Origin: Gyrodactylus bullatarudis
Taxonomy: Eukaryota > Platyhelminthes > Monogenea > Gyrodactylidea > Gyrodactylidae
Assembly (NCBI GenBank): GCA_012064415.1
Contig: SSNU01000038.1
Span: 347,630-411,629 of the forward strand
Direction of reading: 5' to 3'
Length of the DNA stretch: 64,000 nucleotides
Made by a program: the position numbers and the translations under genes. Shown here one piece after another: positions 2,640-57,100 of this stretch (its first letter is position 1; each line of letters begins with the position of its first letter). The notes under the pieces were generated by a model. The model did no database searches and was not told the origin of the DNA. It saw nothing but the letters and a program-made list of their open reading frames with translations.

Positions 2640-3145
2640 GAATTTAACCCTTCATGTACCATTGTTCCACTAGTGGAACACAACACTTTCTTGAGCGATA
2701 ATTTTAACTAAAGATACTTAAAATACTTTGTTCATCACTCATAAGGAAGGAAATTTATAAAGCTACAAAAATAAGTACAATCTATAAAAATAGCTTTTCC
2801 CTGATGCCAACCAGAGTTACTCAAAGAAGGAGGATTTTTTGAAGATGTGGTCAAATATTTAAAACGTTTTTTTGAAGGACTATTTTCTGAGGCCTTATTA
2901 AAAAATAAAACAACTTGCGTAAAACCATGGCCGTAGAATTTAAATATGCAATCGTCTGCTCGATATCTCTTACAGTTTAGCAGATAACTGGTTTTAGAGC
3001 CAAAAAATTCCTAATTTCACCTCTATCATCTTTTAAGTGTTAAGTTGGCTTTGAAAAAGGAAAATAAATCTAGTATCAACGAAATAATTTTGGAAAAGTT
3101 ATGTGATGAAAAAAAATAATTCGGAACATGAAGGATCAAATTGAA
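2640..3145. mobile_element. MITE-like element with terminal inverted repeats (family A)
   Basis: The left end (2641-2657) and the right end (about 3127-3144) are imperfect inverted repeats of about 17 bp (AATTTAACCCTTCATGT against its near complement). Inside the left end sits a perfect 16-bp palindrome at 2664-2679. No coding sequence is present. A second, partial copy lies in a Nipped-B intron from about 39531, sharing the left end and an internal segment (2915-3010 against 39570-39650). A non-autonomous DNA transposon is the simplest reading. Confidence 0.6.
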
Positions 3146-15812: not shown

Positions 15813-16326
15813 ACCTCATCTTCACTAACCTGACTGGATTAAACTCACTCTCTGAAATACCTGCCTCTAATCTTCTCATTGGGCCCACAAAACAATCGGT
15901 ATCAATCCCAATCGCTACACCTGATTACATCTTTCTCTCATTTTAGACAACTTTATCTCTCACTCGACGAATATTTATTCAATGATGGTTTCAATACCAA
16001 TTTCTTCCATCTCCTAATAATTAGAGCTGCAAGAGTCTCCAAAAATTCTACTAATGCCTCTCCCCATATCTCTCAACTCCTATTTGAAAGCTCAATAAAG
16101 GACGATCTTAAAACCCAACCCTCAAAAGCCTTGAAAAAACTAATCGGCCCTTTCATACAATATCATCCCACATGAATGGACATGTGTCAAAATAACGCTT
16201 CTACCAAAGACTTTCAACCCACAAACTGAATCTGATTACAGACCCATATCGAATCTCCCAATCTTCCTTGGCCTCGTTGATTCAATATGCAACCTTCTGT
16301 TAACTCAACATATAAAAATTAACACC

Positions 16327-17154
16327 ATGGACCCTGCTCAACATGGGTTTATCAAAAACAGAAGTACCTCAACCAACCTTGTGTCTTTTTTTAACAAAAT
16401 TGACGAACTGAGATACAGAAGGATCCAATCTGTTGCCATTTTCCTTGATATCGCCAAAGCTTTTGACAAGCTTCCTTTCAATATCATACAAGACGCCCTC
16501 ATAACCTCCGACATCAATCCGTTTGTAATAAATTGGATATCTAATTTCCTCTCCTCAAGAACCCAGAAGGTACACTTTAACGGGCAAATCTCTCACTCTG
16601 TAAATATTTCCTCTGGTGTCCCCCAGGGCTCAGTCATTGGTCCCCTGCTATTTAATTTAGTTTTCGCAAGCGTCAAGCCTTCCTCACCTAATATCTTCTA
16701 CTATAAGTATGCAGATGACCTTAAAATCCTTATTCCAAATTTCTCTAACGACATTATTCGCCAAGAACTTACTCACCTTGAAATATCATTGGCACGAATT
16801 GGCCTTAAAATCAACTCCGCCAAAACTAAATTTATGATCATGAAGACTGCAAAGCCCATAGTGGAACTAGACCCTAACTTCTCTCACCTCATTGTTAATA
16901 AAATCAAAGACCTCGGACTTATGTATGACCATAAAATCTCAATAAGGCCTCATGTGAATGAACTCTTGAAATCTTTAAGATACTCAACATATCTAATTAC
17001 AAGATTCATCACTAGTTCTGAACTCAAAATCAAGGTTTACAAAAGTTTCATACTCTCAAAATTTGACTATGCAGCTGCCCTTATTCTTGGTTTAACCATT
17101 GAATCAACAAGAAAGATCGAGAGAATACAATATAGATTCCTCACCTCATGCTAA
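16327..17154 (+). pseudogene. LINE reverse transcriptase, 5'- and 3'-interrupted
   Basis: 275 codons containing HGFIKNRSTSTNL, FLDIAKAFDKL (first catalytic Asp), SGVPQGSVIGPLLFNLVF, and KYADDLKIL (catalytic Asp pair). Sequence between 15813 and 16326 encodes the missing N-terminal RT part in shifted frames. After 17154 the C-terminal part resumes in the 17185-17451 frame. The RT catalytic residues are intact, but frameshifts on both sides make this a pseudogene. Confidence 0.9.
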
Positions 17155-21392: not shown

Positions 21393-22043
21393 TCATGTAT
21401 TTTGCTTTTCTAAAACCTTGTCAATAATGCCAAAATCAACTGCTTCTTTTGCGGAGAGAAAGGAGTCTCTGTCGAACCATTTATCAATGACTTTTTCATT
21501 TTGTCCAGTATGCTTAATGTAAATGTCTTTCAAAGTCTTTTTCATTTTGATAATCTCATCTGCTTGAATGGAAATGTCTGTTGCTGGACCGTATGCACTA
21601 CCTGAAGGCTGGTGAATCATTATTCGTGAATGTGGCAAGGCATAACGATAGCCGGGAGCGCCAGCGCATAATAGTAATGAGCCCATTGAACTTGCCTGAC
21701 CAACACACCATGTAGCAACTGGAGGATTTATGTATTGGATTGTATCATAAATTGCAAGACCTGAGGTAACAACTCCCCCCGGACTATTTATATAAATATG
21801 AATGGGAGATTTTTTGTCTTCTGATTGCAGATAAAGAAGTTGTGCGATAGTTACACTGGCGATATCATCATTTATTCCACCCATAAGACATATTATTCTT
21901 TCTCTAAGTAATCTTGAATAAATATCATAAGCACGTTCTGAAGACCCATTTTTATCTAGTACTATTGGGATGAGGGAAAAATTCCGTATTAAAGGCTGGA
22001 TTCTGACAGATGCAAGGAAAGATTTTCCAATTTTGTTAAACAT
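21393..22043 (-). CDS. CLPP: ClpP, mitochondrial ATP-dependent protease proteolytic subunit
   Basis: 216 aa, single exon. ClpP is the serine peptidase ring that works with ClpX to degrade matrix proteins. The chosen start is the ATG at 22043, which gives a basic, hydrophobic presequence ([20 protein letters not shown]). The open frame upstream of it has no ATG. The catalytic triad is visible: Ser119 in GQASSMG, His144 in MIHQPSG, and Asp193 in DRDSFLS, with spacing identical to bacterial ClpP. Other family blocks are [14 protein letters not shown] and YINSPGG. A short out-of-frame ATG precedes the start. It is the second gene of a co-oriented minus-strand run ARMH3, ClpP, parvin, COQ5. Confidence 0.96.
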
Positions 22044-22328
22044 TTTATAATAACGCCAAAATAACACATGGTTAAACAAATCACATGTTTGTTGAAGTTT
22101 TTGTTTAAATACTTCCACAACCTCCCAGATTACATATTTGAAAATATTATTTTCAAAATAAAAGGGTTAAAAAATATTTTTTCAATTACAACGTATTACA
22201 AAATGATATTTTGAAAATATTTCATGTACTGCGATGCATTATTATACATCAAGTTGATTCAAAAAGAGCCACATTCATAATTGTAATAAATATATATTAA
22301 ATTTTGATTAAAAATCACAATGAACTTG

Positions 22329-25300
22329 TTAAATATCTGTAAATTGCATTTGAATCTCAGTACTAAATCTTACATAATCTCCACGTATTTTTTCCCTTAT
22401 TGATTCAACAAATAATTCATGTTTTTGATGGATATCCTCTGGATTTATTTGATCAACTTTTTCCAAATCTTCATAGACTCTAAGATTAAGTGACTCATAA
22501 TTATCCTGGATAATTGAGAGAACCTGTTGTTCCGTGAGCGAGGCAATATTTTGAGCTTTTGTAAAGTTGTCAATCTTCATCAAAAAGTGTTTTGCTACTG
22601 CCCTCATGTTTCCCATGTTATTGATCAATGTCATGGCTGCGGTCTTGTAGTCGCTAGACTGTGTATGACTTAGAGCTGTACATAAAATTAATTATTAATT
22701 GATGATGATTACCAAAATTGTAAATCTTTTCGATTGATTTCTCCATGCGAATAAGCTCATAGTTGAAATAATCATACTGCTCAGGAGATTTGAGCAATTC
22801 CGAAGAGTAGAGGATGAATATATTGAATATTTTCATGATGGTACTTAGTAAGTTGAATATTCTCGTCTTGTTAGAATTGGGATCTGGAAGTTCAGTGAGA
22901 TATTTTGCTGTATTCAAAAGACCTGTTAAGAAGTGTTAAGAGAAACCCTACTTATCCACAAAACTTTCCAATCATATTCAATGTGTATTTCGATTTCTTT
23001 CTGATAGACAAGAAGGCCATGGATTGTTTGAAGGCAATTTCTAGTAGTATGCATTAGTATAAAAACTCACTCGTAAATGTAGAATGGAAAGTTTCTCATT
23101 AGATTATTTTGAGTAAACTCAATGACCAAGTCTATAGACAAATTAAATTAGTTCAACAGAGCAATTTACCAAGAATGAATATTACCGCGGGAAGATTTCT
23201 GGTTGTTGTCTCTGGGGAATTTCTATGACGAGTCTTCTACAGAATTTAAACTTGCAAGGCAAAACTTACGATCCGATGAATGATCACATCAAAGAGGGTA
23301 TGCGTATCATGAATTAGGGCGAGAATTTTCTGATTCTAAATGCATGTTTATAATAATCATAAAACTCACATTAATAAAGGTTCGTATAAGATCGAACGAG
23401 AACTCGGTTAGCAGGAGGAGTTCTAGTGGAAGAAATCAAAATTTCAGATATGATAGAGAATACTATTCTGATCTCGAAATAAAAAGAATTTGTATAAAGA
23501 GGTTACACCTTTGAGAAACACACCATCTGATTCAGAATAGAATTCTCTAAAAATTACATTTCTAAATTGTTCTTTTATCTTTGAAAACTTTTCCGCTACA
23601 TGAGTTCAAAATTTAGAATTTAGGAAATAAAACAGGTCAATTTTCTGCCAGATAATTTCACTTTAGAGTTGTGGCAAATAGCTCAATTGATACGGAATCT
23701 CTCAAAATCTATCGATATAGTAAAAGTCTTAGGATGAAATAATTTTGTAAATAATTGTAATTGATTAAAATTACCCTTAACATCTGATATGATAATAGAG
23801 GTGTACTCAAGGAAATCAGCCAGTACATTATGGAGGTTTGTATCTTCATCCTCGTCCTCAAGTGATGAGTCTGGCGAAAGGGAGTTGGTAGTCTTTCTAT
23901 TGATAAGAGAACTATTATTATTGTTGTTGAGGGACATTATTTCAAAGTCTTCAATGGGATTGGACATTGAGGTTCTCGTCGATTCGTTACTTTCCTCCTC
24001 AAGGTCTGCTGATTGGCCATTGATAAAATTCTTAGTTGTCGGATTATTCTTGTGGGAGTAGAGCAGAATGTTGTGGGCATTATTTGGATTAATCACAATC
24101 AATTCGTGTAGGAATAATATTAGACTCTCATAAGAGAGTGACGTGAAATGTTGAGAAATGTCTAGGGCTGGTTTTGAGGAAAACTGGAAAATAACAATAC
24201 AAAAATTAGAAATAAAATGCTTATAGTTGATGATGAAAAAGGAGGTAGCAATAAAATTTGGATGGCTGCAAAATTTTGGTGTTAAAATAGGAAATATCAA
24301 ATTAGTTTTGACATTTAATTTAACATTTAGTACGAAAAATTTTTTCAAATTTTATCCTATAGTTGTTTAATTTCTGAATCAGTATTCATACAAAAACATA
24401 TCATATTAAAGGGCAGAAAATTTGCTACAATCCCTAGCCTGGCCACTTTGAGCTTAGACCTATGAATTCCGAGATATTTTCAATGATAGTTAAAATTTTT
24501 CGAAAAAACTAATTTTAGTCAGTACCTTACTTATGGCTCAGAAAAAATTCCTTTCAATATTAGATAGTAAAGTAGTTGAAATTTATTTGGGTGCTTTTAA
24601 AATTTCAAAAAAGTCTCTAATATATTTTTGGCATGATTGTGTTTTATTTCCTAGATCTAGCAAGTTTTTTTGGACAAAAATTTCGAAAATTAATGCACTC
24701 ACTATTGAGGAAATCGAAGAGATAAATCCAGTGGATGTGGCAGTCTTTTGGCGATACATTCTAATTAATCTTAGAAAAATTTACAAACTCACAAATTAGC
24801 CTGGGATAAAGAATATGATATTGTAAAGGATAGTCCGTTAAGGATGAGCTCATCATTTAGCTGAGATAAATATTCAGCCAAATGATTCTTCTGGCCATCC
24901 TTTTGATGTTTGAGAAGGATTCCAAATATTTGACAGGAATATTTGCCATACTGGAGGCGTTGACTTAAATGAGAGTTAATCTCATTTAATGAATCAATAA
25001 AGCTGGGCATTTCAAGGAGAGCGAATGATATAGAATTATCTTCCATTTTAGGATAAAGAGAAACAATAAGAGTGAAACTATTCAACACCAAAGTTTTGAG
25101 TAAAGGAGACTTTGTTTGGTTAACAATGTAATTGAAACTATCAACAAGGCTGTTGGCAAAAAACTTTATACTACAATCACTCTCCTTATTGAGGAGAAAA
25201 ACGAGTACATCTTGTTTCAACTTCATGCTTAAACATAGAAGAATACAGTCCATAGTCTGGATGGAATTGGCAATTTTCGAGTAAACAGAATCTGTCAGAT

Positions 25301-25583
25301 AATTTAAGCATTGAGCAAAAAGACGTTGTATTTGCGGTCGAATCATTTCAATAGTATCAATACTAGTCTTATCAAAAAGATTTTTAAGAGCTTTGATGTT
25401 AGGCTAGCAAATGAGGGTTATGAATTAGAATTACTTTGAGGAGAAAGAATTCATCCCAAAAATTCGATTTTCCCTGTGTTACATCTTGTCCCTGGAGTGA
25501 TAAATTACCAATGAAATTCTTACAAAAAAGAACTTTTCGTATATACCAACGATTAACTCTTTCCTTTTTACTTCGTTAGCCAT
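22329..25583 (-). CDS. ARMH3: ARMH3 (C10orf76-type armadillo-like helical protein)
   Basis: 695 aa over twelve exons: 25583-25524, 25491-25435, 25403-24793, 24760-24703, 24183-23775, 23422-23370, 23335-23270, 23236-23170, 23131-23071, 23040-22952, 22922-22713, 22675-22329. All junctions keep frame, and total length is almost that of the vertebrate protein (~689 aa). Vertebrate ARMH3 is a Golgi helical-repeat protein that binds PI4KB and GBF1. Diagnostic matches: IYEKFF...FWDEFFLLK near the N-terminus, CLQTIHGLLVYQ and YDYFNYELIRM in the C-terminal DUF1741-type domain, then LTEQQVLSIIQDNYESLNLRVYEDLE. An acidic Asn/Ser-rich insert lies mid-protein. Nine of eleven introns are only 29-38 nt; the other two are 352 and 519 nt. 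Individual exon edges are inferred from frame, GT-AG and homology; the smallest exons carry the most risk. Confidence 0.85.
23438..23746. repeat. Dispersed repeat inside ARMH3 intron 5 (family D)
   Basis: About 309 bp matching 49268-49577 (integrin beta intron) in direct orientation over its whole length, with roughly 80-85% identity judged by eye. It occupies almost all of the 352-nt intron 23423-23774. Confidence 0.8.
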
Positions 25584-25726
25584 ACCAGGCCAGATAATTT
25601 AGATGACAACTCCTAAGTTTTGTCTTTGCTAATTACTGAAACAAAATTAAGGGATCATCAGGATGATTGTTTAAAAAAATCTTTATTCAAAATTTGTTAT
25701 TTCAAAAAAATTATTCACCATCAAGT
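25584..25726. promoter_or_regulatory. Divergent ARMH3/CTF18 promoter region
   Basis: Only 143 bp separate the ARMH3 ATG (minus, 25583) from the CTF18 ATG (plus, 25727). Both 5'UTRs and the core promoter must fit here unless upstream exons exist. No TATA box is obvious. A four-codon upstream open frame (ATG ATT GTT TAA, 25663-25674) precedes the CTF18 start. Confidence 0.6.
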
Positions 25727-28687
25727 ATGGATTACGATGATTTTGAGGATCTTATCCAACTTGAAGAGGCTCTCATAATTGAAGAAAAAGAAAATCAGTT
25801 AGAGGAATCTCTGTTTAGTTTGAAGGAAAGCCAGGATTCAAAGTCTACCCAGAGACCAATAAATGAAAATAAGATCAATTCAAGAAAAAGAGAGGCTAGT
25901 CCCCCGATCAAAATCGAGGAAATCAAGAAGATAAAGACTTTTGATGCAAATGTTAAATTCCTCTATGAAAATATGCCATCTGTAGGTGAATTTATCACAT
26001 TCCGTAATGAGATTGGCAAAAAGTTTTATTTGAGCTTACATGATTCTGTTATCGATAGTAAATCATTTGAATTCAAATTTACCACTAGTGATACATTTTA
26101 TGAGATAATGGATCAGGCAATCCATTACCTAGCGTCAAAAGAATCATTTAATGAGCTTGTCTCCCACGAAAATTATGATGAAAATGCCACCTTGTGGTTG
26201 AACAAATACAAGCCCAAGAGTTATCTTGATTTATTGAGTAACGAGACAACGAATCGTCTGTTTCTCCGCTGGATAAAAGCATGGGATTATTATGTCTACA
26301 ATCGTAAACCAAAGAAACCAACAAGTACGCCTAATCAGAGCAATGAGACAAATCAGAAATATCGAAAATTTGGCATCAATGAAAATCTTATTCAAGAAAT
26401 TGATGAGCACGATAAAAGGCCTCGTTTCAAAATGATTCTATTACATGGTTCACCGGGCCTGGGTAAAACTACTCTGGCTCATCTTATAGCAAACATTGCT
26501 GGTTATAATGCAATCGAAATAAATGCCAGTGACGACAGATCCCCGGCAGTCCTCAGGGAAAAGTTGGAAGCTGTTTTGAATACAAACACGAGCTTGAAAA
26601 CAAGTAACGATTCCTATAAGCCATCTTGTCTTATTATTGATGAAATTGACGGGGCGGTTGCCGCTTCAATTGATCTACTTATCGATGCCTCTCGGACGCC
26701 CATAAATTCTCAGAAAAAGTGAGTCAACTTTGAAAAAAAAGAATTTCTGAATTTTATCTCATCAAATCATCATCGGATCAGGTCGAAAAATGCTAGATTA
26801 GCAATACGCAGACCCGTCATATGCATTTGCAACGACTTGTATGCAAAGAGTATGCGGTCCTTTCGCAGTCCAAATGTTCCCTGTTTCATTCTAAAATGTT
26901 CAGAGCCATCTGTTAGCAGGTTGACTGATCGACTTATGGAAATTATCGAAGCTGAAATAACTCTACCCCGAATGAAGAAGGCCTTTGATAAAACCTTGCT
27001 TCATAAACTAATTGATATCTGTGAGAGAGATGTTAGATCCTGTATTAATGCTCTCCAGTATATGAGCACTCACAAAATTGAGTCTGCCACTGATGTAAAG
27101 TCATTAGACCTGGATGCCATTTTGAAAGTATCTGGAACCTATAAAGACAAGAATACCAATTTATTTGGGACATGGCAACAGGTCTTCACCATTCCATCCA
27201 ATCCAGGGAACAAGGACTCACAGAATTTATCAAAGTATGTATTTCCCTTTGATACTGATATACAATATGCTATTATATATAAGAATGCATCTATATATTA
27301 TTTTGTTCCAGGAGAGTCTCCGATGTTGTGGAATCTTTCTTCTCTGTAGGAGAACCAAATCTTTTTATTGGAGGCATCTTTGAGAATTATCTCTTTGCAA
27401 GGGCCAAAGATGCCAGTATGATTGTCGCTAATGAAGCGTGTAGAATGATTGAAAACTTTGATAAACTCCAGACTATGATTAGCTGCATGCAAGACTATTC
27501 CTTCTTCAAATACACTTCAATAATTCCAGCCTGGTTCAATCTCTCCTTAGCTACCTACAATGGAATTATCCGAATGAAATCCTTTGACAAAAAAGATTCT
27601 GAAGAGCCGAAAAAGTATCAAAATCAATCGATTAACGTGGGCCTCAAATGGCCAACTGCAGAATTGGATGCCAGCAACAAGCAACACAAGATTGAGCAAA
27701 TTGTGGAAAATTGTCTCGCCAACCAGTGGACAAACACCAACCGAATTTCCCATAGTGACTCAGTCAGGTAACTGCTCTCTTTGTCATCGTAACGTATCAT
27801 TTGATAATTTTTATCAAACTTACTACTAGAATGCTATCAAAGAGGGAATTTATCCTGGACACGGCCCCTTCCTTAATAGAAATGATCTCTTCAAAGACTA
27901 AGAAACTTCGCCCTGTCAATTCTCAACTATACTCTAAACAAGAGAAAGAAACCTTGGCTGAAACAGTAGATCTCATGTTATGTTTAGGTCTAGCCTGGAA
28001 ACTACAGGCTAACCCAGATTCTGAAAGTTCAGAACTCGTATACCAATTGGATCCGTGAGTTGTCCTCTCTTATTGCTAACAACTCTTTAGACCCATTGAC
28101 AGTTCAGTTCTCTTTGATTTGGATAATCCTGACGAGAAGACATCATCATTAAAGGAAATTAATGCATCTGTCCAGAAACTCATTTCTCACGAAATGCACC
28201 TAGAACTGATGAGACGAAGCGAAAGAGATCAGGAAACCAATCCCAATATGAACGCTAGTTTTGACCAGTCTCGATATGAACTGGTTGTTGTTAAAAGTGA
28301 GGAGCTGGAAAAGAAAGATGAGGAAAATGACTCTAAAGCCAAGGTAAGGATACTAGTCAGTTAAACCAAGTTTGTAAAGAAGATGACCAGTTTTTAAATT
28401 ATTACTAGACGTCTTTTGTCTCATTAGTTACATTTCTTTTCCAGCCAAAAAAAGACTTTTTCGGTCGAATAATTGAAAAGAAGAAGCCTCTTATCAAGGA
28501 AGTCGATGTCAGAGGTGAGCATATCAAAAAAGAAAATTTAGTCCACTTTTTTCAAATTCTATCTTTAGGACGTATGACGCCTTCTCAAAAGTGGGAACTC
28601 ATAAACAGGGATGTTTGGTTTAAATTCAAGGAAGGCTTTTCAAATGCTGTAAAATTGCCAGTTTCTAGACAACGTTTGGAGTTGTGA
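25727..28687 (+). CDS. CHTF18: CTF18, alternative clamp-loader large subunit
   Basis: 855 aa in seven exons: 25727-26718, 26782-27234, 27312-27767, 27830-28054, 28091-28343, 28445-28514, 28569-28687; introns 63, 77, 62, 36, 101 and 54 nt. CTF18 replaces RFC1 in the Ctf18-RFC complex, which loads PCNA and supports sister-chromatid cohesion and replication checkpoint signalling. The AAA+ module shows Walker A (HGSPGLGKTT, about residue 240) and Walker B (IIDEIDG, about 303), followed by RPVICICNDLYA and RDVRSCINALQYM. The C-terminus has KLRPVNSQLYS, KKDFFGRI and VWFKFKEGFSNAV, typical of CTF18. I start at ATG 25727 (MDYDDFEDL); the open frame upstream lacks an in-frame ATG. It is functionally linked to Nipped-B downstream, since both support cohesion. 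Confidence 0.93.
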
Positions 28688-54185: not shown

Positions 54186-57100
54186 ATGAGTAAGTTGTCT
54201 GAATAAGTATGATTTTCAGTGTCTAATCCCGAATCTTGGAAAATTTCTTCCGACGATCGTATTAAACACGATGCTCAGTTTGCTTTTCTACGCCCAGTCA
54301 ATGGCTTCGTTACTGGAGAACAAGCTAAACCTGTCTTTCTGAAATCTGGTTTAAGCCAAGAAATTCTATGTAAAATTTGGCAGTTAGCAGACTATAACTC
54401 TGATGGTAAAATGTCTAAACAAGAATTCTCCATAGGCCTATTTCTTGTTCAAAAAGCTCTTCAAGGATTTCCACTTCCAGATAATTTACCTCCGAATCTT
54501 TTGAAGAATCCTGATGATGATTTCGGAGAACATATTTTTGATTCCAGCTCCATCATGAACACCCATGAAAATGATCAGAATTGGGTTATTCCACCGGCTA
54601 AGATGCCAAAATACAAACTTCAGTTCAACGAACACGATAGAGCTAGAAAGAATTATCTAACAGGACTCGAAGCTCGTGCAATAATGGTGAAAACAGGTCT
54701 TCCCCAATCAGTTCTTGCTCATATTTGGAATTTGTCTGATTTGAATAATGACGGTTGCCTAAGCTCTAATGAATTCTGTATTGCTTCTTTCTTGATTGAA
54801 CAGGCCTTATCAGGCAGAAAGTTACCACAGGTACTTCCACCATCCATGTTGCAGTTCCAAAATTCTCCTACAAACAAGATTCAATCATTTGTTGGATCAT
54901 TCGAAGAAAAAAGAATGGAAAATTTCCAAAATGGACAGGCTGAACTTGAACGTCGTCAGCGAGAATTTCGAGAACAACAGGAAAGAGAAGAGGAAGAGAA
55001 ACGACTAAAACAAAAAGCTGAACAAGAACGAATGGAGAAAGCTCAACAGGAAGCAGAACGTATTCGTCTTGCCGAGGAAGCGAAAAAGCTTGAAATTCAA
55101 CGCCAGGCATTATTGGAAATCGATAAAAAACGAAGAGAAGCTCACGACGCCAGAGTGGAAGCATACAAAAAGTTAATGTACGAAAAGGCTTTAGAAAATG
55201 AAAACTCCTATGTTGAAAAACTCAAGATACAACACGCTCAAATCCTCAACTCAATTCAGTTTGCACAGGATCAGCGAGCTAGTCTTTTGAAAACTGCAAC
55301 AGAACAATTACATCGCCTTAAAGAATTGGATGACTTTCATACCAAGATCCAAGTAGAGCACAACGATTTCAGAGACCTCTTTGGCCAAATGCGCTTGAAA
55401 AGAAATCAATATGAGGAAGATATCAGAGGTCTAAGTGAGAAGTTGACAACTGTAATTGCCGAAAGGTCTGCCATACAACGAGAAATGACTCGGATCAAGG
55501 AATCCAATCCAATGGGCCTCGTGAATAACTCTCATCTTGTTGAGCAGAAAAAAACTCTCCTTAATGATTTACAACTGAAGAAGGCTAATATTGAATTTCT
55601 TCAAAGCTCTTCCAAAAATTTCACTTCTGAATTAACTAATATCGGGACTGAGCTAGCAAATCGTCGCAATAAGGCCAAAGAACTCGAGACAAAAGCCAGG
55701 GAACTTTACGAGGCTTGTCAGAATACAAAAAGTAATCTAATGTCACAGTGTCCTAAGAATATTTCAGAAAAATCGGTTGTAAATCCTGAATTTACCCAGT
55801 CCAATGGAGACTCCCTATTCAACTGGACTGAAATAAAACCGCAATCTAATCAAAGTGAAGCATCCGATTTATTTGCTGTCTCCTTTCCTAACAATTCTGC
55901 CAATAACCAGATGACTAGTAACGCTTTTGAACTTGACCCATTCTCTGATTCAACTCTAAAATCGACTTCTGACAAGCCTAAACATGAAAATCCTAAAGAA
56001 GAAATTTATTATAGAGCCATCTATGACTTTGATGCTATTCGCAGTGATGAAATTTCCTTCAGAATTGGAGATCGTATTCGTCTTGTTAATAAGGAGCCTG
56101 GCAATGGATGGCTCACTGGAGAGTTGATCTCAACTGGATTTCCTCAATCAACTACTACTGGGTTCTTTCCAGAGACTTATGCTGCGCGTGAGGATAAAAA
56201 TGAAGTTTTACCATTTTCCAGTATAACTGGTACAAGTCCAATTTCGTTCGGTCCTGCTGTAGTCTCAGGTAAAAGTGACAAGAAAATGATTGACCCTTTC
56301 GATCCATTTGCAATGCACTCAACAGCAAGAGCCCCTCCCCTATCCTCAAACCCAACCAACATTGATAATTTGAATGATCCCTTTGCTCAGTTCAATTCGG
56401 ATCCCTTCTCTCCCATTCCGAATTCCAGGGATCAGCCCATTCTCGCTATTACAAATGGTTTCGATGCTTTCTCACCCTTTGAGACCAACGCCAACCCATT
56501 ATTTGATTCAGGAACAATGGTTTTTGAGTGTAAGGCCCTCTTCCCCTATGAATCAAGTGTAAACGGAGATTTAAGCTTCAGTCCTGATGAAATTATCTGC
56601 GTGACCAAAGTTCAAAATCAAGACTGGTACACTGGCTATATAAAGAATCAGCCATCACGCCAAGGAATGTTCCCCATGAATTATGTGCAAAAGATATCTG
56701 TGAGTTTTCTTGTTTATTTGCACATCATGTCTCAAAAATGTTCCTTCATTAAGTCATCCATGTTTGAAAATCCTGAATACCACTCGATTTGACACTACTT
56801 TAAACCTAAACATGTCCGAAATTAACTCTATCGATACCTATCTTGTTTCAAACCAACTTTTTCCAATGATTTTAAAACGTTTTTTCATGATTCCTTGTTG
56901 AAAGTACATCCAAAAAACTATTCAATTTTGCTATCATGCTAAATTTTTGCTAGCCAGACACGAGAATGATATTTGAGTTTCTTCAGAAAGGAGTAGAATT
57001 CTTAAATCCATGATTCTTTTTGATCGAAATTATTAGACTTAACAATGTTCTAAGATGATAAAATTTATTTCTATAGTAGCTGAATAGCTAATTCAGAACA

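What the first reader, a model, noticed from the sequence alone, without database searches (positions are those of the whole stretch)
22329..25583. ARMH3 gene built with nine introns of only 29-38 nt
Seen: joining exons at GT-AG sites of 32, 31, 32, 34, 33, 38, 30, 29 and 37 nt restores one 695-codon frame matching the ARMH3 family from start to end; phases agree at every junction. Known: most animal spliceosomes need introns above about 40-50 nt. Inference: this genome has a splicing machinery or intron-recognition mode that tolerates introns near or below the usual minimum. Several contain TTAAT or TACTAAT close to the acceptor, leaving almost no branch-point to 3' site spacing.
Basis: partly seen in the sequence, partly recalled or inferred. 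Interest (0 to 1): 0.9.

Follow-up and report, generated by a model that had tools for sequence, protein, structure and literature searches.

The report
Ordinary flatworm micro-introns in ARMH3
A gene of a parasitic flatworm is cut by very short introns, which are real as far as sequence can show, already known as a feature of flatworm genomes, and do not call for an unusual splicing machinery.

Summary
The nine introns of 29-38 nt are at the stated places on the minus strand, and their removal helps restore a 695-codon ARMH3 protein. The third short intron has a rival acceptor (23 nt).

COX1 of the same assembly is closest to Gyrodactylus (85 %), a monogenean flatworm. Short introns near 36 bp are published for tapeworms and Gyrodactylus salaris (PMC5036155), near 37 bp for a trematode (PMC6530080), with a 27 bp median for a dicyemid (PMC6543705). 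In six interrupted chaperonin genes of this genome I found twelve more introns: three of 30-33 nt, seven of 54-69, two of 109 and 118. Two of these genes align without gaps to solved orthologues at their junctions.

U1, U2, U6, U12, U2AF65 and the SF1 helix-hairpin domain are present. A branch-point anomaly could not be shown. Verdict: real, but already known for this group; no transcript was seen.

The parts
22329..25583 (-). ARMH3-family gene, 12 coding exons, 11 introns, 695 codons plus stop
   Evidence: model; PF08427, 152.5 bits; alignment to P0001-P0003
25492..25523 (-). intron 1, 32 nt, phase 0
   Evidence: (3 of 3 homologues)
25404..25434 (-). intron 2, 31 nt, phase 0
   Evidence: (3 of 3)
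24761..24792 (-). intron 3, 32 nt, phase 2; a rival acceptor gives 23 nt (24792-24770)
   Evidence: 32 nt with P0001 and P0002, 23 nt with P0003
   Evidence: long introns of 672-708 nt here, donor 24702 in 2 of 3, acceptor 24184 in 0 of 3
   Evidence: donor 23774 in 3 of 3, acceptor 23423 in 1 of 3 (the other two 23547)
23336..23369 (-). intron 6, 34 nt, phase 0
   Evidence: exact with P0003; P0001 and P0002 use the same acceptor with another donor (173 nt)
23237..23269 (-). intron 7, 33 nt, phase 0
   Evidence: (3 of 3)
23132..23169 (-). intron 8, 38 nt, phase 1
   Evidence: (3 of 3)
23041..23070 (-). intron 9, 30 nt, phase 2
   Evidence: (3 of 3)
22923..22951 (-). intron 10, 29 nt, phase 1
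   Evidence: (3 of 3)
22676..22712 (-). intron 11, 37 nt, phase 1
   Evidence: (2 of 2 homologues that reach it)

Best explanation
This is the ARMH3 gene of a Gyrodactylus-like monogenean flatworm, and its nine tiny introns belong to the short-intron class ('peak-1' or micro-introns, near 36 nt) known from flatworm genomes. They are most likely removed by the ordinary U2-type spliceosome through intron definition: U1 pairs with the donor (GTRAGT exactly in 4 of the 12 short introns examined, variants of it in most others), and U2AF and U2 act on the AT-rich 3' half and the TAG or CAG acceptor within one short span. Shown: the sequence of the introns, the restored frame, the same class in other genes, and the presence of core machinery genes. 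Inferred: that they are spliced at all, that the U2-type spliceosome does it, and intron definition; no transcript was seen.
For: COX1 nearest Gyrodactylus, then other gyrodactylids and flatworms. Gene model and homology. Twelve introns in six chaperonin genes: 33 and 58; 31, 30 and 109; 63, 54 and 59; 60 and 68; 69; 118 nt; one GT-AG choice fits each junction, two in one case. The spliced CCT6 and CCT4 proteins align to orthologues of known structure without a gap at the 31, 30, 109, 33 and 58 nt junctions. U1 x2, U2 x3, U12 x1, U6 x2, U2AF65 (467 bits, 502-aa open frame), SF1-HH (96 bits). Published: bimodal short introns at about 36 and 73 bp in tapeworms and G. salaris (PMC5036155, passages read); trematode micro-introns peaking at 37 bp, and micro-introns in other flatworms (PMC6530080, passages and section 9 read).
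Against: No RNA data. Intron 3 has a rival acceptor. On ARMH3 alone AT-rich fake pairs score nearly as well, and slightly better with P0003. My sample has only 12 introns under 40 nt, 9 of them from this gene, and the chaperonin genes were chosen because they were visibly interrupted (six of nine; the other three matched in one frame without stops). An ab initio intron count over 234 kb failed to separate real from fake splice pairs, so I give no genome-wide distribution. The published weakening of the pyrimidine tract was not seen: the pyrimidine fraction before the acceptor is 0.66 in both short and middle-sized introns.
Confidence: 0.94

Rival explanations
1. The genome has a modified spliceosome or a U2AF-independent recognition mode (for example SPF45-like, as for a subset of human short introns) that permits introns of about 30 nt.
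For: Introns this short leave little room for a classical branch site plus pyrimidine tract (inference); a subset of human short introns depends on SPF45 and not on U2AF (PMC8363638: title and start of abstract in the listing, two reference-list passages).
Against: U2AF65, SF1-HH, U1, U2 and U6 are present, two of three U2 loci hold the GTGTAGTA stretch; short and middle-sized introns have the same pyrimidine fraction. Presence does not show use. SPF45 and SF3B1 were not searched.
Confidence: 0.07
2. The short introns are minor (U12-type) introns.
For: A U12 snRNA gene is present.
Against: None of the 12 short donors begins with GTATCC (U12 consensus recalled). AT-AC introns were not looked for.
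Confidence: 0.01
3. The segments are not introns: the frame is broken by sequencing or assembly errors, or the gene is a pseudogene.
For: An AT-rich sequence offers many GT..AG pairs; TT-AG scores almost as well on this gene and slightly better with one homologue.
Against: The insertions are 29-38 nt blocks that come out at GT and AG, not single-base shifts; blocks of the same kind interrupt highly conserved chaperonin genes and come out at GT-AG to the residue.
Confidence: 0.01

Closest known systems
Short 'peak-1' introns of tapeworms and Gyrodactylus salaris (Nat Commun 2016, PMC5036155; passages read)
   Same: Length class near 36 bp next to a second class of middle-sized short introns; same genus as the nearest COX1 match; AT-rich introns
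   Different: Here the second class lies at 54-69 nt in seven introns, against about 73 bp in print; the sample is too small to call this a difference
Trematode and other flatworm micro-introns (BMC Genomics 2019, PMC6530080; passages and one section read)
   Same: Peak at 37 bp; several micro-introns adjacent in one gene
   Different: The paper reports weaker pyrimidine tracts and splice sites closer to consensus; I could see neither in 12 introns
Dicyemid introns (Front Genet 2019, PMC6543705; GBE 2019, PMC6736024; passages read)
   Same: Very short animal introns (median 27 bp in Dicyema sp., mean 38.2 bp in D. japonicum)
   Different: Another animal group, with a still lower median

Membership tests
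Flatworm micro-introns (peak-1) | Length in the short peak (near 36 nt) | tested here: met
   Nine of eleven ARMH3 introns 29-38 nt; 3 of 12 chaperonin introns 30-33 nt
Flatworm micro-introns (peak-1) | Host is a flatworm | tested here: met
   COX1 best match Gyrodactylus albolacustris 85 %, next three 80-81 % (gyrodactylids by recall); 120 of 8000 matches were listed, many of them unnamed, and the named ones I recognise are flatworms
Flatworm micro-introns (peak-1) | GT-AG ends | tested here: inconclusive
   12 of 12 short introns, but GT-AG was imposed by the search. Seven fake pairs of the same base composition score lower, AT-rich fake pairs nearly as high or slightly higher
Flatworm micro-introns (peak-1) | Micro-introns adjacent to each other in the same gene | tested here: met
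   Introns 1-3 and 6-11 of ARMH3
Flatworm micro-introns (peak-1) | Reduced pyrimidine tract, splice sites closer to consensus | tested here: inconclusive
   Pyrimidine fraction 0.66 in short (n=12) and middle-sized (n=7) introns; donors mixed
Flatworm micro-introns (peak-1) | Removed from mRNA | not testable with these tools
   No transcript data were at hand
ARMH3 family | ARMH3_C domain over its Pfam cut-off | tested here: met
   PF08427 152.5 bits, cut-off 27, profile 3-218 of 231
ARMH3 family | Homology over the full length | tested here: met
U12-type introns | GTATCC donor | tested here: not met
   0 of 12 short donors (consensus recalled)

The most novel reading that the evidence does not exclude
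Gyrodactylid introns of 29-33 nt lie below the published flatworm peak and are recognised without a separate branch site and pyrimidine tract, through a U2AF-independent or fused 3' site recognition that has replaced the classical order of steps for this class.
Probability: 0.06. Interest if true: 0.6.

Novelty: already known. Interest (0 to 1): 0.14.

Why it matters
It matters mainly for annotation: a default minimum intron length that is too high hides such introns, a point already made in print for the Clonorchis annotation (PMC6530080). How a normal animal spliceosome handles introns of about 30 nt is still a fair biochemical question, and flatworms are a good place to study it, but this gene adds one example to a known class.

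Tried and rejected
An ab initio codon-usage gene finder with an almost length-neutral intron state, over 18 sequences (233,985 bases), did not work. In the first run the real splice pair scored 1903 against 1831-1883 for four fake pairs. After self-training it degenerated, with three of four fake pairs scoring higher than the real one (12232, 12937 and 11990 against 9990; the fourth 9173). I therefore give no genome-wide length distribution.

Kinesin matches show gaps from 38 nt to about 6 kb between neighbouring exon hits, and some genes in one frame; I used them only as a rough look, since ends of profile matches are not splice sites. The myosin search and the ribosomal RNA search did not complete. 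A dicyemid or orthonectid origin was considered first and dropped after the COX1 match. The species was not determined: 77.3 Mb in 471 contigs fits none of the Gyrodactylus assemblies tabulated in PMC12677651 (84.35, 67.38, and 87.62/91.13 Mb; passages read). Two papers on flatworm introns that I looked up by DOI from memory are not held, so the G. salaris statement rests on PMC5036155.

Full report
What the window is. The window is part of contig C385 of a 77.3 Mb assembly in 471 contigs. A 14,926-bp contig of the assembly holds a mitochondrial COX1; its best match is Gyrodactylus albolacustris at 85 % identity over the whole query, followed by three further gyrodactylids (by recall) at 80-81 %, and then by monogeneans, flukes and tapeworms among the 120 of 8000 matches listed. 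The host is thus a monogenean flatworm close to or in Gyrodactylus. The species was not determined.

The gene. On the minus strand, from an ATG at 25583 to a stop ending at 22329, removal of eleven GT-AG introns leaves 2088 nt, 695 codons and a stop. The other two, 24702-24184 (519 nt) and 23774-23423 (352 nt), are not in its list although its 695 codons require them: 3255 - 2088 - 296 = 871 = 519 + 352. The protein matches ARMH3_C with 152.5 bits and aligns to three homologues, one of them named armadillo-like helical domain-containing protein 3 of Daktulosphaira vitifoliae.

Are the short introns real? I aligned the unspliced DNA to the three homologues with a program that charges every intron the same, whatever its length. 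P0001 chose 8 of the 9 short introns exactly, P0002 7 (it ends before the last), P0003 8. The exceptions: intron 6 (34 nt) was replaced by a 173-nt one with the same acceptor in P0001 and P0002, and intron 3 was 23 instead of 32 nt in P0003. The middle of the gene is poorly conserved. There the three alignments differ: the first long intron came out as 678, 672 and 708 nt, never with my acceptor 24184; the second as 228, 228 and 352 nt. Forbidding introns below 40 nt costs 157, 111 and 92 score units; with no introns at all the scores are 127, 137 and 120, and P0001 against the other strand gives 53. Seven fake splice pairs of the same base composition as GT-AG (one strong and one weak base in each dinucleotide) reach at most 435, 351 and 313 against 527, 426 and 370. 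Five pairs that use AT-only dinucleotides reach at most 502 (TT-AG), 403 (TT-AA) and 373 (TT-AG; also 371 for TA-AA), the last two above the real pair. In so AT-rich a gene this test alone is moderate evidence.

Independent genes. One search shows nine genes with chaperonin (Cpn60/TCP1) matches. Three match in one frame without stops; I fetched the other six, which were visibly interrupted. In these I could see both sides of twelve internal introns. Between the exon peptides that I set, each junction allowed one GT-AG choice, in one case two. Lengths: 33 and 58 (CCT4); 31, 30 and 109 (CCT6); 63, 54 and 59; 60 and 68; 69; 118. The names CCT4 and CCT6 come from the matches; the other subunits I recognised only from memory. 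I did not look for introns at the 5' ends of these genes. The spliced CCT6 and CCT4 proteins align to orthologues of known structure (zeta and delta subunits; mammalian by recall) without a gap at any of their five junctions. That places the 30, 31 and 33 nt introns to the residue, in genes of very high conservation, and makes errors or pseudogenes an unlikely account. Taken with ARMH3, 12 of 23 introns are below 40 nt, 7 are 54-69, 2 are 109 and 118 and 2 are 352 and 519. This is a chosen sample, not a genome-wide distribution; my attempt at the latter failed.

Machinery. The assembly has two U1 matches, three U2, one U12 and two U6, all over their Rfam cut-offs. Both U1 loci carry the ACTTACC stretch, and two of the three U2 loci the GTGTAGTA stretch (that these are the canonical forms is recalled). 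A U2AF65 match of 467 bits (cut-off 310, profile 22-510 of 510) lies in an open frame of 502 aa, with RRM domains in Pfam; the SF1 helix-hairpin domain matches with 96 bits (cut-off 29.3, profile 36-111 of 114). SF3B1 and SPF45 were not searched.

Branch point. Sites of the form YTAAY are in 7 of 12 short introns against a mean of 3.66 in shuffles (P 0.033); CTRAY 3 against 1.19 (P 0.106); YTRAY 7 against 4.45 (P 0.105); YTNAY 10 against 9.39 (P 0.495). In the seven middle-sized introns YTAAY is in 2, fewer than the 4.31 of the shuffles. These are several uncorrected tests on one small set, and sites nearer than 4 nt to the end were not counted. One intron has its only YTAAY site 4 nt from the end; five have one at 11-21 nt. 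The pyrimidine fraction before the acceptor is the same, 0.66, in the short and the middle-sized introns.

What is known. Tapeworms and Gyrodactylus salaris have bimodal short introns with peaks near 36 and 73 bp (PMC5036155; passages read). Opisthorchis felineus has peaks at 37 and 90 bp besides one at 3000, and micro-introns are seen also in other flukes, Echinococcus multilocularis and the free-living Macrostomum lignano; in O. felineus they cluster in genes (PMC6530080; passages and section 9 read). The two papers differ on flukes: PMC5036155 gives only the first short peak there. Dicyemids go further down, with a median of 27 bp in Dicyema sp. (PMC6543705, passages read) and a mean of 38.2 bp in D. 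japonicum (PMC6736024, passages read). The premise that animal spliceosomes need more than 40-50 nt is thus not general.

Verdict. I rate interest low. The remaining open point, how the spliceosome fits a 29-33 nt intron, is a general question about this known class and not opened by this gene.

Noticed in passing
window 25583 (-) and 25667-26722 (+): The ARMH3 gene and an AAA-ATPase open frame on the other strand (CTF18-like by recall) lie head to head; if its first ATG is the start, the two starts are about 150 bp apart, so they may share a promoter region.
   Followed up: no
window 21393-22166 (-): A ClpP protease match in a single open frame just downstream of ARMH3 (260.6 bits).
   Followed up: no
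window 16144-17154 (+): Reverse transcriptase open frame (RVT_1, 102 bits), probably of a retroelement.
   Followed up: no
window 54213-56792 (+): An 859-aa open frame with EH and SH3 domains (intersectin-like by recall).
   Followed up: no
L040 (G000:C252:369199-369356): A U12 snRNA match over its cut-off, so this compact genome keeps at least part of the minor spliceosome.
   Followed up: partly
G000:C404, C468, C443 and L036 (G000:C344:30782-32164): Three chaperonin matches and the U2AF65 match run in one uninterrupted frame, next to interrupted relatives in the same genome; intron density differs strongly between genes.
   Followed up: no
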